From assembly GCA_025451395.1 (NCBI GenBank), contig JANWKM010000073.1, positions 1 through 33,693 on the forward strand: 33,693 bases of DNA, read 5' to 3'. A program made the translations under genes and the position numbers. Source of the DNA: Ilumatobacteraceae bacterium. Its GTDB lineage: Bacteria; Actinomycetota; Acidimicrobiia; Acidimicrobiales; Ilumatobacteraceae. The notes beneath the pieces are model-generated. The model did not search any database. It had not been told where the DNA came from and saw only the letters and a list, made by a program, of their open reading frames with translations. Positions 250 to 27,099 of the stretch are shown piece after piece; within the stretch, counting starts at the first letter, position 1, and every line of letters starts with the position of its first letter.

Positions 250-747
250 TCAGCTCGCGCGCGCGAGAAACGGTAACCAGGCGTCGGGAATGCGGGCGAC
301 TGCCGCGCTGATCCACGCGTGTTCGCGTGGAGCACACGGAGGCCGCAGCAATCTCATTCCCGCCTCGGCCGGCGTCCGATCGCGCTTGCGAAGATTGCAT
401 GGCCGGCACGCGGCCGCGACATTCTCCCAGTTGTGCAGGCCGCCGCGTGAGCGGGGCACCACGTGGTCGAGCGAGTCGGCGTGCCCGCCGCAGTATTGGC
501 ACCGGGCGTCGTCGCGCGCGAATAGCGCACGTCGCGACATCGCTGTGCGACGGGAATATGGAACCTTCACCACGTATCGCAGCTTCACGACCGATGGGCT
601 TGCGATGCTCAATCGCGCGGAGTGCACGATGTGGCCATCGCCAGCGATCAGGTCGGCCTTATCGGCGAGGATCAAGCAGATCGCCCGAAACGCGGGCACG
701 ACAGAGAGCGGCTCGTAGGTTGCATTCAACACAAGCGCGCTTCTCAT
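250..747 (-). CDS. HNH endonuclease family protein
   Basis: This 165-residue protein has a classic zinc-supported HNH fold. It shows C83-x2-C86 (CQYC), the D94-H95 pair in SLDHVVPRSRGG, N109 in WENV, and C114-x2-C117-N118 (CRPCN). The N-terminal half (VLNATYEPLSVV...) is typical of a chromosomal HNH family widespread in Actinobacteria, whose target is not established. The ATG at 747 was chosen because the protein then starts at the conserved MRSALVLNATYEPL; the frame stays open upstream but that part reads as non-coding and would overlap the next gene. It lies 10 bp after the small protein gene and abuts the lipoate-ligase-like gene, so all are probably co-transcribed. Nothing nearby suggests an intron, phage or toxin context, so a housekeeping role is more likely than mobility. 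Confidence 0.88.
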   Translation of the reverse strand: MRSALVLNATYEPLSVVPAFRAICLILADKADLIAGDGHIVHSARLSIASPSVVKLRYVVKVPYSRRTAMSRRALFARDDARCQYCGGHADSLDHVVPRSRGGLHNWENVAAACRPCNLRKRDRTPAEAGMRLLRPPCAPREHAWISAAVARIPDAWLPFLARAS

Positions 748-757
748 CGGGTGAAAC

Positions 758-1012
758 CTAACGACACTTTTCTTGCAAACGGCACCATTCAAGGTAGTTG
801 AGCACATCATCGGGCACGATCGGGTGATCGGCGCGGCCGTATTGCGTGACCATTCGGAAGCGCAAGTACTCACCGGACGGCACCGGCAGGAACGGTCGCC
901 GACGCCACCACCGGCTCGGTGTGGTCCGCCGCCACTGCGCGATGGCCGTGCGCCACAATCGTGGCTGGCGCGCGACGGCGACCCCGACGGCGAGATTCGC
1001 TCGCAAGCTCAC
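758..1012 (-). CDS. Small conserved basic/aromatic protein of unknown function
   Basis: An 84-residue protein starts at GTG 1010-1012, whose GTGA overlaps the TGA stop of the acyl-CoA dehydrogenase by four bases, so translation is coupled. The N-terminal half is very basic with many Trp and Arg residues (QWRRTTPSRWWRRRPF). The C-terminal half reads YLRFRMVTQYG...DDVLNYLEWCR and ends in LQEKCR. I believe this resembles a short actinobacterial conserved hypothetical often found beside acyl-CoA dehydrogenases, but I cannot name a family. The same frame stays open far upstream, antisense-like inside the dehydrogenase gene, but only this distal part reads as protein. No signal peptide or membrane segment is visible. 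No function is assigned. Confidence 0.7.
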   Translation of the reverse strand: MSLRANLAVGVAVARQPRLWRTAIAQWRRTTPSRWWRRRPFLPVPSGEYLRFRMVTQYGRADHPIVPDDVLNYLEWCRLQEKCR

Positions 1013-2223
1013 CGCGGCTCTTTGGGAAGGCCCAGCACCATTTCGCCGATGATGTGGCGCTGCACCTGTGAGGAACCCGCGTAGATCGTCCCGGCGCGCG
1101 CGTTTAAGAACGTCCCGACCCAACTCGCGGTGCTGTTCGGAGCCCCCGCGTCGTCGGTCATGAAGGCGCTCGAGGGTATTCGTCCGGTTGGTGTCATTGC
1201 TTCGGCGCCAATGATGTCGAGCGCGAGCTCGGTCACCTGTTTGTGGTACTCGCTCCAGTAGAGCTTGGAGATCGCGGCATCGGGTCCCGGCTGATGCCCG
1301 TTGAGAAACTGCGTCAACACACGCATGCCGTTGTACCGCATGATCTGTACTTTCGAATAGCAGTCGGCCAAGCGCTGACGGATGCGCGGATCGCTGGCAA
1401 CACCACGCTCGTTGGCCAACAACAGCAGTCGATCGACCTCTGCCCGAAAACGAATTGGGTTGGTTGCAGCTGCTTCGCCGCGCTCGAAGCCGAGCAACGT
1501 CATCGCAACAGCCCAACCGTTGTTGACGCCACCGACGACATCGTCTTTCGGTGCGGTGGCATCGGTGTAGAAGACCTCGTTGAATTCGCTCTCGCCACTG
1601 ATCATCTTGATCGGGCGCACTTCGATACCTGGTTGACGCATGTCGACGAGCAGGAACGAGATGCCTTTGTGCCGCGGAGCATCGGGGTCGGTACGAGCAA
1701 GCGTGAAGATGTGGTCGGCGAGGTGGCCAGCGCTCGTCCAGATCTTCTGACCATTGAGGAGCCACTGATCGCCGTCGAGCTGAGCCTTCAGCCCCAGATT
1801 GGCGAGATCGCTCCCAGCGTTCGGCTCGCTGTAACCCTGGCACCAGGTGTCGGCACCAGAAAGTATGCGCGGCAGGTGATGGCTCTTCTGTTCGTCGGTA
1901 CCCCACCGCAGCAGCGTGTTGCCCAACATCTGGATGCCGAACACATCGTTAGGGCCGCCGACCGGCACACCTGCCTTCGCGAACTCTTCGGCGATGATGA
2001 CCTGTTCGAGCGCCGACAGTCCGGCACCGCCATATTCCACCGGCCAGCCCGGTGCGAGGTAGCCGCCGTTGTACAGAACCTTTCGCCATTCGATGACGAA
2101 CGCGGTGAGTTCCTGCCCGTTGAGCTGACCGATGCCACCCCAATCGGTCGGCAACTTCTCGGCGAGGAACGCCTGCACTTTCTCGCGATACGCCTCGGCT
2201 TCCGCGGTGTACGTCGGGCGCAT
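1009..2223 (-). CDS. Acyl-CoA dehydrogenase (FadE-like)
   Basis: This 404-residue flavoprotein has the usual length and domain order of acyl-CoA dehydrogenases: an alpha-helical N-terminus, the beta domain with the signature GYSEPNAGSDLA (about 130-141) and KIWTSAGHLAD (160-170), and a C-terminal helical domain. It would oxidise an acyl-CoA to the enoyl-CoA, passing electrons to ETF. The C-terminal loop reads IYAGSSQVQR (Y381-A382-G383), so the MCAD-type catalytic Glu of the YEG motif is absent. Glu247 in GFERGE is a candidate alternative base, as in isovaleryl- and long-chain-type members. The closing GEMVLGLPKEPR resembles actinobacterial FadE proteins acting on branched or sterol-derived substrates (inference). 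It starts 19 bp after the ROK gene and overlaps the small protein downstream. Confidence 0.93.
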   Translation of the reverse strand: MRPTYTAEAEAYREKVQAFLAEKLPTDWGGIGQLNGQELTAFVIEWRKVLYNGGYLAPGWPVEYGGAGLSALEQVIIAEEFAKAGVPVGGPNDVFGIQMLGNTLLRWGTDEQKSHHLPRILSGADTWCQGYSEPNAGSDLANLGLKAQLDGDQWLLNGQKIWTSAGHLADHIFTLARTDPDAPRHKGISFLLVDMRQPGIEVRPIKMISGESEFNEVFYTDATAPKDDVVGGVNNGWAVAMTLLGFERGEAAATNPIRFRAEVDRLLLLANERGVASDPRIRQRLADCYSKVQIMRYNGMRVLTQFLNGHQPGPDAAISKLYWSEYHKQVTELALDIIGAEAMTPTGRIPSSAFMTDDAGAPNSTASWVGTFLNARAGTIYAGSSQVQRHIIGEMVLGLPKEPR

Positions 2224-2242: not shown

Positions 2243-3100
2243 CTACCTCACTGGCACTGAGCGGCGAGCCAATGCGGCTGCGCCCACCAGTGGCGCAAGT
2301 TGACCAAGACCGGCGGGAACGACAGTGAAGCCGCGCAGGAAACTGAGTTTCGCTCGCTGTTCGAGCTCGGCACGCAACGCACCGAAGAACGGTTCGCCGA
2401 AGCCGATGGCGACCGAGCCACCGATCACCGCCGTATTGAGATCGCAAATCGCTCCCAGGGATGCCAGCGCGCGCCCAATCAGGATTCCAGTACGTTCGAC
2501 GATGCCCTGCGGTGCGCGCTGCGGCGGACGGCCGGTCTCCTCCTCGATCGCCTTGCCACCGCAGTACGCCTCGACACATCCCTTGCCACCACACAGGCAT
2601 GGTCGGCCATCAGGCTCGACGACGATGTGGCCGAAGTGGCCGGCATTGCCGTGATTGCCGTCGAGTAGCCGGCCGCGACTCACTATCCCCGCACCAACTC
2701 CGGTGCCCATCGAGATGTACACGAAGTCAGAAAGTCCGACGGCCGCGCCGCACCACGCCTCGGCGAGCGCAACCGCCTTCGAGTTGTTGTCAACGATGGT
2801 GGGAAGCCCGGTCAGCAACTGCACCTCGGCAGCCAACTGAAAGCCATCGAGGCTGGGAATATGCAGCGGCGACACAGTGCCTTCGAGCGGGTTGGCGGGG
2901 CCGCCACAGCCGATACCACAAGCGACTGGGTCACCAGGAGCGGTGACCTGCACTCTTTTAATGAGCCTTGACAAAGCCGGCCACACGTCGCGTTCGGGTG
3001 TCGAGATGCGGTCGCGCACCAATACCTCACCATTCTCGTCGACGACCCCGGCGGCAAGTTTCGCCGAACCGACATCAATCGCGAGATAGCACACCGTCAT
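2243..3100 (-). CDS. ROK-family protein with altered catalytic motifs
   Basis: This 285-residue protein has the ROK fold: an N-terminal ATPase phosphate-1 region (AIDVGSAKLAAG), MGTGVGAG near 131-138, and the ROK zinc motif C168-x-C170-x4-C175 (CLCGGKGC). Several usually decisive residues differ. The DxGGTK loop reads DVGSAK. The catalytic Asp of the ND(A)xA motif aligns with Asn106 in VDNNSKA, codon AAC, one change from GAC. The ExGH glutamate aligns with His155 in GHFGH. The zinc site is intact. A sugar kinase with different chemistry, or a regulator or pseudo-kinase, are both possible; there is no N-terminal helix-turn-helix. The ATG at 3100 has a -10-like TACCGT 7 nt upstream, so the transcript is probably leaderless. 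It heads the minus-strand run with the acyl-CoA dehydrogenase. Confidence 0.85.
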   Translation of the reverse strand: MTVCYLAIDVGSAKLAAGVVDENGEVLVRDRISTPERDVWPALSRLIKRVQVTAPGDPVACGIGCGGPANPLEGTVSPLHIPSLDGFQLAAEVQLLTGLPTIVDNNSKAVALAEAWCGAAVGLSDFVYISMGTGVGAGIVSRGRLLDGNHGNAGHFGHIVVEPDGRPCLCGGKGCVEAYCGGKAIEEETGRPPQRAPQGIVERTGILIGRALASLGAICDLNTAVIGGSVAIGFGEPFFGALRAELEQRAKLSFLRGFTVVPAGLGQLAPLVGAAALARRSVPVR

Positions 3101-20002: not shown

Positions 20003-20935
20003 TTAGTGCAGGTCGGCGAGCATGGCGGCACCGATCGCGCCAGCGCGTTCGCCGAGTTGGGCGAAGACGAGCGCGGGGTGCGGGCGAAGATCGGGGGCGT
20101 AGAGCAATTCGCCGAACCAGTGCCGGATCGGTGCCAGGAACACATCGGCGCCGACAGCGAGACCACCACCGAGTACGAACATTGCAGGATCGAGAATGTT
20201 GGTCAGGTTGACGAGACCGAGCGCTACCCAGCGGCCGTAGTCGTCGACGACGGCCAACGCATCGGTGTCGCCCTCGCGTGCCGCACCGGTGACGTGTTCA
20301 CCGCGCACATCTCCTGGCTTGCCACCCGCCAACTCGATCGCGCGCGCAACCCCCTGGCCATCGTGCGCGCTGTGCGCGAGCCACGCGAGACCAGCACCCG
20401 ACGCGTAACGCTCCCAACAACCGCGACGACCGCAGAGACATGGCCGGCCATCGGGGTCGACCACCATGTGGCCGATCTCGCCGGTGAAACCATTTGCTCC
20501 GCGAATCAGCACGCCACCGGCGATCACGCCACCGCCGATGCCGGTACCAAGCGTGACCATGACGACATCGTCGACACCGCGTGCGGCACCGACCTTCCAT
20601 TCCGCAGCACCGGCGCAGGTGGCATCGCTGTCGACATACACGAAACAACCAAACTCCTTGCCGAGTAATTCACCAACACGCAGATTCTTGATCTCAACAA
20701 GGTTCGGTGCCGCCCGGATTACGCCGCTGCGATCGACAAGGCCAGGCATGCCGACACCAATCGAGTCCCACGGCTTCATCGACTGCGCGAGTTCGATGAC
20801 GGTTTGGATCAGCTCGTCGGGGTGCTGAGGCGTGGGGCGGCGTTGCTGGTCGATCACCGCGCCGTGTGCGTCGATCGCGACCGCCATGCACTTCGTGCCG
20901 CCGATATCGATGCCGAGCCGGCGCGACGAGTTCAT
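20003..20935 (-). CDS. ROK-family glucokinase
   Basis: A 310-residue ROK sugar kinase with all motifs intact: GIDIGGTKCMAVAID, catalytic Asp104 in VDSDATCAGAAEW, GTGIGGG, GEIGHMVVDPDG and the zinc motif CLCGRRGC. It is most like the actinobacterial glucokinase that makes glucose-6-phosphate, possibly using polyphosphate in relatives. It differs from the second ROK protein of the window, which lacks several of these residues. ATG 20935 overlaps the TGA of the SRPBCC gene (ATGA), so it is the last gene of a coupled pair. It fits with pfkA in sugar metabolism, though it is not in the same operon. Confidence 0.92.
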   Translation of the reverse strand: MNSSRRLGIDIGGTKCMAVAIDAHGAVIDQQRRPTPQHPDELIQTVIELAQSMKPWDSIGVGMPGLVDRSGVIRAAPNLVEIKNLRVGELLGKEFGCFVYVDSDATCAGAAEWKVGAARGVDDVVMVTLGTGIGGGVIAGGVLIRGANGFTGEIGHMVVDPDGRPCLCGRRGCWERYASGAGLAWLAHSAHDGQGVARAIELAGGKPGDVRGEHVTGAAREGDTDALAVVDDYGRWVALGLVNLTNILDPAMFVLGGGLAVGADVFLAPIRHWFGELLYAPDLRPHPALVFAQLGERAGAIGAAMLADLH

Positions 20936-25401: not shown

Positions 25402-25444
25402 TCGAACGCCTGTTCTTGACACGAACGGGCGTTCGTGCTCAACT
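25402..25444 (+). promoter_or_regulatory. Two SOS (LexA) boxes and promoter of the DEDD-UvrC-like gene
   Basis: Box 1, ACGAACGGGCGTTCGT at 25421-25436, is a perfect inverted repeat that contains the actinobacterial SOS core CGAAC-N4-GTTCG. Box 2, TCGAACGCCTGTTCTT at 25402-25417, has the half-sites TCGAAC and GTTCTT. Between and over them is a strong -35 TTGACA (25416-25421), 17 nt, then a -10-like TCAACT (25439-25444). Box 1 fills the spacer, so LexA binding would block RNA polymerase. Transcription would start near 25451, two bases before GTG 25453. Seen directly; LexA use is by consensus. Confidence 0.8.
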
Positions 25445-25452
25445 GGGCCGCT

Positions 25453-27099
25453 GTGCAGCGCTCGCTCGACGATCTGGGCACGCCGCTCGCCGATGTCACG
25501 TTCTGCGTCCTCGACATCGAAACGACGGGAAGCGACCGTGGTGGCGACCTGATCACCGAGATTGGCGTCGTCAAAGTGCGACGCGGCGAGTGCCTGGGCA
25601 CGATGGCCACACTGGTCAACCCTGGCAAAGCGATCGCTCCCAGCGTCGTGGTACTTACCGGCATCACACAGTCGATGGTGGCCACTGCACCGCGCATCGA
25701 ATGCGTGTTGCCCTCGTTGCAAGAGTTCGTCGGCGATGCGGTCATCGTCGGCCACAACGTCGGCTTCGACATGGGCTTCATCAACGCCGCCCTGCTGCGC
25801 AGCGACCGCGCATCGTTTCGCAACATCGTCATCGACACGTTGCCTCTCGCCCGCCGGTTGATGCGCGACGAAGTACCCAACTGTCGACTGGGCACGCTTG
25901 CCACTCGTCTCCGGCTCGATCACAAGCCAACGCACCGCGCGCTCGACGACGCGCTCGCCACCACCGACCTGTTGCACCTGCTGCTTGAGCGCGCAGCTGG
26001 CCTCGGCGTGTTAGGTCTCGATGATCTGGTGTTGCTACCAAAGATGGGCGGCCATCCGCAGGCGGGGAAATTGAAGCTCACGCATCACTTACCGCGCGCG
26101 CCGGGCGTGTACCGCTTCCTCGGCGCGTACGACGAGGTTCTCTACGTCGGCAAGGCCACCAATCTGCGCCAACGCGTGCGCAGTTACTTCGGAAGCGATG
26201 ATCGCCGCAAGATCGGGCCGCTGTTGCGAGAGACGCAGCGACTCGCGCACACCGCTACAAGCGATCCGATCAGCGCCGAGATACTCGAGCTTCGGTATCT
26301 GCACCGCTTGAATCCGCGATACAACCGCGTGGGCACTACGTGGCAGAAGTACTGCTATGTGCGCATCACGACCGAGGAGGCATGGCCGCGACTCGTGATC
26401 ACTAGCGAACCTGCGGCTACCGGTGTGCACATCGGGCCACTCACTTCACGATCGACGGCCACCGCCTTCATTGAGGCGGTGCAATCGGCACTTCCCATTC
26501 GGCGGTGTGGCACCAAGATCGGCAAGAACTACAAGCCCCCCGTCGACGCAGTGCCGTGCGCCGGCGCCCGACTCGGTGTCGCGCTGTGCCCGTGCAGCGG
26601 CACAGCCGACGAGGCGACCTATTGGCGGATTGTTGCGCAGGTTGTCGCGGCCTGCACGACCTCGCCACAGCTTGTACTCGATCCGCTGTGGACGAAGATT
26701 GCAGAGCTCGCCGCCGGTCGCCGCTACGAGGAAGCGGCGAGCATGCGCGACCGCGCGACGGCGTTCGCGGGCGCCATCACTCGCCAGCGCCGGTTCGACC
26801 AACTTCGCTCGGCCGGTGAGGTCGAGGTGCAGATCCACGACACCACGCTGCAGATTCGCGATGGCGTGCTGCTGACTGTGCAACAGCCGGGCCAGTTCGC
26901 CACCGAACTCGAGCTCGCGCCACCGGTGGCGCCAGCATTTCCGGTGACCCTCCCCCGCCAGGCCGCCGACGAGGTGTTGTGTCTCGCTCGCGCCATCGAC
27001 CGCGCCAGTTTTCACGCACGACTGCACAGTTGCACTGGCGAGTGGGCATGGCCGACGACTCCGGTACCTGAGGTCACTCGTCTTCATGCTGCTGCTTGA
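25453..27099 (+). CDS. DEDD exonuclease - UvrC-like (GIY-YIG) fusion
   Basis: A 548-residue protein combining two nuclease types. Residues ~15-180 are a DnaQ-like DEDDh exonuclease: VLDIETTG (Asp21, Glu23), HNVGFDMGFI and HRALDDALAT. A linker follows, then a GIY-YIG nuclease as in UvrC and Cho: PGVYRFLG...VLYVGKATNLRQRVRSYFG with a distal Glu in ILELRYLHRLNPRYN. A UVR-like motif, ELAAGRRYEEAASMRDRA, lies near 425. The UvrC C-terminal RNase-H-like half is absent. It is known as a conserved actinobacterial fusion and expected to act in repair. GTG 25453 is preferred because the TTGACA promoter, with SOS boxes, places the transcript start 2 nt before it; GTG 25435 is in the promoter. It overlaps convergent thrB by 26 bp. 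Confidence 0.9.
   Translation: MQRSLDDLGTPLADVTFCVLDIETTGSDRGGDLITEIGVVKVRRGECLGTMATLVNPGKAIAPSVVVLTGITQSMVATAPRIECVLPSLQEFVGDAVIVGHNVGFDMGFINAALLRSDRASFRNIVIDTLPLARRLMRDEVPNCRLGTLATRLRLDHKPTHRALDDALATTDLLHLLLERAAGLGVLGLDDLVLLPKMGGHPQAGKLKLTHHLPRAPGVYRFLGAYDEVLYVGKATNLRQRVRSYFGSDDRRKIGPLLRETQRLAHTATSDPISAEILELRYLHRLNPRYNRVGTTWQKYCYVRITTEEAWPRLVITSEPAATGVHIGPLTSRSTATAFIEAVQSALPIRRCGTKIGKNYKPPVDAVPCAGARLGVALCPCSGTADEATYWRIVAQVVAACTTSPQLVLDPLWTKIAELAAGRRYEEAASMRDRATAFAGAITRQRRFDQLRSAGEVEVQIHDTTLQIRDGVLLTVQQPGQFATELELAPPVAPAFPVTLPRQAADEVLCLARAIDRASFHARLHSCTGEWAWPTTPVPEVTRLHAAA

What the first reader, a model, noticed from the sequence alone, without database searches (positions are those of the whole stretch)
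2243..3100. ROK protein lacking the catalytic Asp and other kinase residues
The catalytic Asp of the ROK motif aligns with Asn106 (AAC), the GGT phosphate loop reads GSA, and the ExGH glutamate is His155, while the zinc site is intact. The second ROK protein in the window (20003-20935) keeps the Asp, the GGT and the ExGH. This suggests a non-kinase role, such as sensing or regulation, for a gene heading an acyl-CoA dehydrogenase run.
Basis: partly seen in the sequence, partly recalled or inferred. Interest (0 to 1): 0.5.

Follow-up and report, generated by a model that had tools for sequence, protein, structure and literature searches.

The report
Dead sugar-kinase paralogue kept by selection
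A bacterial gene that looks like a sugar kinase has lost the residues needed to move phosphate but keeps its fold, zinc site and sugar pocket, and relatives show the same kind of loss several times independently, always in genomes that carry a second copy retaining the key residue; it therefore probably does a non-catalytic, perhaps regulatory, job.

Summary
The observed residues are real. The gene (minus strand, 2243-3100, 285 aa) is a ROK protein with Asn106 for the catalytic Asp, GSA for GGT, His155 at ExGH and an intact zinc site. His155 is not a loss: E. coli NanK and all 17 intact order-level relatives have His there. The Asp loss is a loss: all 14 orthologues found in the genus lack it (N11, T, R, L), so it is no sequencing error. 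Across 193 homologues the Asp was lost about four times, only in genomes carrying a second, Asp-bearing paralogue; every single-copy genome keeps it. In this genus the phosphoryl-transfer residues decay (Asp106 0/14, Thr13 4/14, Thr133 2/14) while sugar contacts, metal Asp9 and zinc ligands stay; zinc ligands are invariant in 193/193. dN/dS in the two closest pairs is about 0.04-0.06. The same Asp-to-Asn change abolishes activity in NagK (PMC10031466). Best reading: a retained pseudokinase made by duplication, probably sugar-binding and regulatory, possibly pairing with paralogue B through the conserved dimer face (untested). It does not head an acyl-CoA dehydrogenase run: one such gene follows, then HNH, lipoate-ligase-like and the mraZ-rsmH-ftsL-ftsI cluster.

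The parts
2243..3100 (-). ROK pseudokinase gene, copy A (285 aa)
   Evidence: ORF, PF00480 hit, AlphaFold pLDDT 89 / pTM 0.89, PDB fold matches to ROK hexokinase 3vov and NanK 2aa4
3062..3070 (-). residues 11-13 G-S-A where kinases have G-G-T
   Evidence: Thr13 kept in 4/14 genus orthologues, 17/17 outgroups
2783..2785 (-). codon AAC, Asn106, at the catalytic Asp position
   Evidence: Asp in 0/14 genus orthologues, 17/17 outgroups and all sampled single-copy relatives
2702..2704 (-). Thr133 (phosphate-contact Thr, PsNagK T132), still present here but lost in 12 of 14 genus orthologues
2636..2638 (-). His155 at the ExGH Glu position; NanK-type residue, not a loss
   Evidence: His in 17/17 intact outgroups; EcNanK His153
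2576..2629 (-). zinc site His158, Cys168, Cys170, Cys175
   Evidence: invariant in 193/193 homologues including the most degenerate
1009..2223 (-). acyl-CoA dehydrogenase, 19 nt downstream of the ROK stop; same pair at -26 to +144 nt in every family genome where it was measured
253..1008 (-). HNH endonuclease-domain protein, next gene downstream
   Evidence: PF01844/PF14279
3134..4174 (+). MoxR-type AAA ATPase, divergent neighbour (then DUF58 and TgpA-like transglutaminase)
20003..20935 (-). second ROK protein, glucokinase-like, all kinase motifs intact
   Evidence: TIGR00744 228 bits (cut-off 260); DIGGTK, VDSDAT, GEIGH

Best explanation
The gene encodes a ROK pseudokinase. SHOWN: it descends from a NanK-like ROK kinase lineage found across the order; in its family the lineage exists as two paralogues (A, at this locus; B, elsewhere in the genome); copy A lost the catalytic Asp in the ancestor of this genus and, separately, in a second large clade; the fold, zinc site and residues matching the known dimer interface are kept under purifying selection; in this genus the sugar-contact residues are also kept. 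INFERRED from published mutants: it cannot transfer phosphate. HYPOTHESIS: it works by binding, as a sugar-responsive regulatory protein. The most economical version is a regulatory partner of its paralogue B through the conserved C-lobe dimer face, in the manner of dead-paralogue 'prozymes'; a sugar sensor acting on another partner is the close alternative.
For: Asp106 absent in 14/14 genus orthologues, present in 17/17 order outgroups. About four separate losses on a tree built without the catalytic columns (A in genus g1; A in a 24-row clade with SH-aLRT 99; B in G027; B in G022). All 38 Asp-less A sequences come from genomes in which B was also found; no sampled genome lacks Asp in both; all sampled one-copy genomes keep it. 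Selective decay in g1: phosphoryl-transfer sites 12, 13, 106, 133 keep 14/56 cells, sugar/zinc-side sites 105, 152, 155, 158, 177 keep 65/70 (rows are related, so the Fisher p is descriptive only). Zinc ligands 193/193. Positions 148, 161 and 165, matching human GNE dimer-interface mutation sites G559, V572, G576, are invariant or nearly so even in dead copies. dN/dS of the two closest genus pairs 0.058 and 0.036 for A, 0.025 and 0.020 for B. PsNagK D105N has no detectable activity, T10V and T132V lose about 16- and 11-fold in kcat (PMC10031466). Confident ROK fold.
Against: No biochemistry. The metal Asp9, Asn105, Lys14 and (in the window protein) Thr133 remain, so weak or unusual activity is not excluded. 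A and B are not neighbours, and heterodimers were not tested. In g18, g21 and g22 both copies mostly look competent, so the A+B state does not require a dead partner. In five genomes B also lacks the Thr13 hydroxyl, so 'one copy is always fully active' does not hold strictly. The deep clade lost the sugar pocket too, so sugar binding is not the common retained function. Loss events are few; treekit found only 3 independent pairs for copy number against Asp loss, too few for a test.
Confidence: 0.6

Rival explanations
1. A sugar-binding sensor or adaptor unrelated to paralogue B: a kinase-derived receptor like the effector part of NagC/Mlc but without a DNA-binding domain, passing the signal to another protein, for example the co-encoded acyl-CoA dehydrogenase or the cell-wall/division gene products encoded nearby.
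For: Sugar-contact residues kept in g1; ROK-A and acyl-CoA dehydrogenase stay adjacent (-26 to +144 nt) in every family genome measured, whether A is dead or intact; Mlc O-domain dimerises like ROK kinases.
Against: No HTH or other output domain; the adjacency also holds where A is an intact kinase, and gene order may persist by descent; Asp loss occurs only where B exists.
Confidence: 0.25
2. Still a working but slow or unusual kinase: another residue, metal arrangement or phosphoryl donor replaces Asp106.
For: Asp9, Asn105, Lys14 and Thr133 are present in the window protein; several genus members keep GGT.
Against: D105N in PsNagK abolishes activity; the position drifts (N, T, R, L), and Thr13 and Thr133 decay as well; the neighbouring Asp104 is also present in normal kinases, so it is no replacement.
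Confidence: 0.1
3. A redundant gene on its way out after duplication, without function.
For: Catalytic residues lost; the deep clade has long branches; G024 and, at the E-value used, G012 lack both copies.
Against: dN/dS near 0.04-0.06 in close pairs, open frames in 14/14, invariant zinc ligands, kept sugar pocket and kept operon position across many genera.
Confidence: 0.05

Closest known systems
ROK N-acetylmannosamine kinase NanK (E. coli 2aa4; H. influenzae 6jdc)
   Same: Best-scoring NCBIfam subfamily (PRK05082, below cut-off), same fold, His in place of the ExGH Glu, zinc motif
   Different: Catalytic Asp and the phosphate-loop Gly-Thr lost; only about 30% identity; substrate of the lineage unknown
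ROK transcriptional repressors NagC, Mlc, XylR, Lmo0178
   Same: ROK domain used for ligand binding and regulation rather than metabolism (family knowledge)
   Different: No N-terminal DNA-binding domain: the first beta-strand starts at residue 4 of 285 aa
Dead-paralogue regulatory subunits ('prozymes': trypanosome AdoMetDC/prozyme, PMC5201418; deoxyhypusine synthase, PMC3663545)
   Same: Duplicate of an oligomeric enzyme loses catalysis and is kept beside a catalytic paralogue
   Different: Different enzyme class; complex formation and activation are shown there and untested here
Human GNE kinase domain / P. shigelloides NagK
   Same: Structural template for Asp, Thr, sugar and zinc positions and the C-lobe dimer
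   Different: Active enzymes with Glu at ExGH

Membership tests
ROK family (PF00480) | Profile match above gathering score and ROK fold | tested here: met
   173.7 bits against 22.9; AlphaFold model matches 3vov, 2aa4 and others
ROK family (PF00480) | Zinc motif H-x9-11-CxCGxxGCxE | tested here: met
   H158, C168, C170, C175, E177; zinc ligands 193/193
ROK sugar kinase | Catalytic Asp | tested here: not met
   Asn106; 0/14 Asp in genus orthologues
ROK sugar kinase | DxGxT phosphate motif | tested here: not met
   D-V-G-S-A in the window; T kept in 4/14 of the genus
ROK sugar kinase | ExGH sugar motif | tested here: inconclusive
   HxGH, the variant of E. coli NanK (PMC5458393) and of all 17 intact outgroups
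NanK (NCBIfam NF047821 / PRK05082) | Score above curated cut-off | tested here: not met
   129 of 450 and 143 of 283 bits; the intact order relative also falls below
ROK transcriptional repressor | N-terminal DNA-binding domain | tested here: not met
   285 aa, ROK domain from residue 5, no HTH segment
Dead-paralogue regulatory pair (prozyme-like) | Catalytic loss in one of two co-occurring paralogues | tested here: met
   38/38 Asp-less A sequences co-occur with an Asp-bearing B
Dead-paralogue regulatory pair (prozyme-like) | Physical complex and change of activity | not testable with these tools
   Dimer-face residues conserved; no heteromer prediction or assay possible

The most novel reading that the evidence does not exclude
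A kinase-pseudokinase pair in the ROK sugar-kinase family: one paralogue repeatedly and independently gives up catalysis (either copy can be the one) and becomes a sugar-responsive allosteric subunit of the other, a bacterial metabolic 'prozyme' system without a DNA-binding domain.
Probability: 0.3. Interest if true: 0.65.

Novelty: new variant of a known kind. Interest (0 to 1): 0.5.

Why it matters
ROK non-kinases are known as repressors with a DNA-binding domain. A domain-less ROK pseudokinase lineage, with several independent catalytic losses tied to gene duplication, is a natural series of replicates for how a metabolic enzyme turns into a non-enzyme: intact, Asp lost with sugar pocket kept (this genus), and pocket residues lost with fold kept (deep clade). 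It also warns annotators that these proteins, filed as sugar kinases, cannot be assumed to phosphorylate anything. I found no description of such a lineage in the open-access library searched, which is not proof of absence.

Tried and rejected
Rejected: His155 as a mark of lost catalysis (it is the lineage norm and present in E. coli NanK). Rejected: sequencing error (14 independent assemblies). Rejected: 'acyl-CoA dehydrogenase run' (a single such gene, then HNH). Rejected as a claim: 'one copy is always fully competent' (in five genomes B also lacks the Thr13 hydroxyl; PsNagK T10V keeps about 6% of kcat, so such copies may be weak rather than dead). A heterodimer prediction was not attempted, since the tool folds single chains.

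Full report
WHAT IS THERE. The ORF at 2243-3100 is on the minus strand, 285 aa from an ATG at 3100. It is a ROK protein (PF00480, 173.7 bits) with no DNA-binding segment before the ROK domain. An AlphaFold model built with 15 relatives is confident (pLDDT 89, pTM 0.89) and matches ROK hexokinase 3vov and E. coli NanK 2aa4 best. The second ROK protein (20003-20935) keeps DIGGTK, VDSDAT and GEIGH.

WHICH CHANGES ARE LOSSES. His155 is not one. All 17 sampled relatives from other families of the order, with every kinase motif intact, have His at this position, and the structural paper on F. nucleatum NanK lists His153 of E. coli NanK there (PMC5458393). The lineage scores best with the NanK subfamily, though below cut-off, and E. 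coli NanK is the best PDB match of an intact relative. The Asp and the Thr of GGT are losses. In P. shigelloides NagK, D105N leaves no detectable activity and T10V and T132V cut kcat about 16- and 11-fold (PMC10031466).

IS IT CLADE-WIDE. Of the 15 genus genomes held, 14 have an orthologue and none has Asp at position 106: Asn in 11, and Thr, Arg and Leu once each. The residue drifts, so Asn itself is not selected. A sequencing error is excluded.

TWO PARALOGUES. In the family (222 genomes searched) the lineage is present as copy A (the window locus) and copy B (in this genome on contig C160, 44% identity). A tree built without the catalytic columns separates A and B (B SH-aLRT 96; A without one stray row 94), with order-level single copies outside except for two weakly placed rows (for a smaller set: A 99, B 95). 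Genera g4, g6 and g10 carry A only, g2, g3 and g23 B only; all sampled members keep the Asp and, with Ser counted, a phosphate-loop hydroxyl. The Asp was lost in A in this genus, in A in a second, 24-row clade covering twelve genera, in B of G027 and in B of G022. Every Asp-less A (38 of 38) is in a genome where B was also found; no genome lacks Asp in both. In five genomes B, though it keeps Asp, also lacks the Thr13 hydroxyl (a sixth, G172, has a B fragment that does not reach that site), so both copies may be impaired there. In g18, g21 and g22 both copies mostly look competent.

HOW THE PROTEIN DECAYED. In this genus the loss is aimed at phosphoryl transfer: Asp106 0/14, Thr13 4/14, Thr133 2/14, Gly12 8/14. 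Sugar-side residues stay: Asn105 12/14, Asn152 14/14, His155 12/14, Glu177 13/14; metal Asp9 14/14 and zinc ligands 14/14. In the deep clade sugar contacts have largely gone as well, while zinc ligands (193/193 over all homologues) and residues 148, 161 and 165, corresponding to human GNE dimer-interface mutation sites (PMC2742894), remain. The two closest genus pairs give dN/dS 0.058 and 0.036 for A, against 0.025 and 0.020 for B: a constrained gene, not a decaying one. Wider pairs are near saturation and were not used.

SURROUNDINGS. Across family genomes the order is DinB polymerase, DUF3040, [TgpA, DUF58, MoxR on the other strand; not seen in several small genomes], ROK-A, acyl-CoA dehydrogenase, HNH, lipoate-ligase-like, mraZ, rsmH, ftsL, ftsI. 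The ROK stop and the dehydrogenase start are 19 nt apart in the window and between -26 and +144 nt in every family genome measured, whatever the state of A (the two extremes come from split dehydrogenase frames). In the one order outgroup with the pair the gap is 658 nt. So there is one coupled dehydrogenase gene, and the locus is the head of the cell-wall/division cluster; no run of dehydrogenases was found among the window genes scanned. Copy B lies elsewhere, near a 2OG-dioxygenase-like protein, a YpfJ-type metallopeptidase, a DUF418 protein and an alanine-racemase-like protein, with a mycofactocin glycosyltransferase (MftF) further along in some genomes.

MECHANISM. Shown: two paralogues, repeated Asp loss, fold/zinc/dimer-face retention, sugar-pocket retention in this genus. 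Inferred from homologous mutants: no phosphoryl transfer. Hypothesis: a sugar-responsive binding protein that regulates paralogue B through the conserved C-lobe dimer face, as dead paralogues do in trypanosome AdoMetDC (PMC5201418) and deoxyhypusine synthase (PMC3663545). I put about 0.85 on 'no kinase activity', about 0.6 on the whole best explanation as worded, and 0.3 on the A-B regulatory pair. A sugar sensor for another partner is the main rival.

LIMITS. Host names are not shown for these genomes; an actinobacterial host is suggested by the FtsL_Actino match and by the gene order. Residue states rest on alignment positions inside conserved motifs. Loss events number about four, so the link to copy number is consistent but not a statistical proof. 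Copy number in draft genomes can be undercounted, which affects the single-copy class more than the two-copy class.

Noticed in passing
L042 / L197 (G000 contig C160) and other B copies: Copy B keeps the catalytic Asp but has Leu (two-copy genomes) or mostly Gly (B-only genera) where kinases have the sugar-contact Asn105, and Ala for Gly66; its sugar specificity has probably shifted.
   Followed up: partly
window 1009-2223 and L092-L151 syntenic loci: The ROK-A / acyl-CoA dehydrogenase pair is tightly spaced in every family genome measured regardless of whether ROK-A is intact; the functional link is unexplained.
   Followed up: partly
window 1009-2223: The acyl-CoA dehydrogenase reads YAGSSQ where many family members have the catalytic Glu (YEGT, from memory); the base may sit elsewhere, as in some other acyl-CoA dehydrogenases. 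Not checked.
   Followed up: no
L092 279-6886 and homologous loci: The ROK-A locus lies just upstream of lipoate-ligase-like, mraZ, rsmH, ftsL and ftsI, the head of the division and cell-wall cluster, across the family.
   Followed up: yes
L198 731-2326, L125 636-1430: Mycofactocin glycosyltransferase MftF and a creatininase-family protein lie a few genes from copy B in several genomes.
   Followed up: no
L043 (G000 contig C152): A further ROK protein, open frame over 340 aa, with NDAD kept but no DxGGT motif; possibly a ROK repressor.
   Followed up: no
window 25435-27099: RNase T exonuclease domain together with a GIY-YIG domain in one ORF.
   Followed up: no
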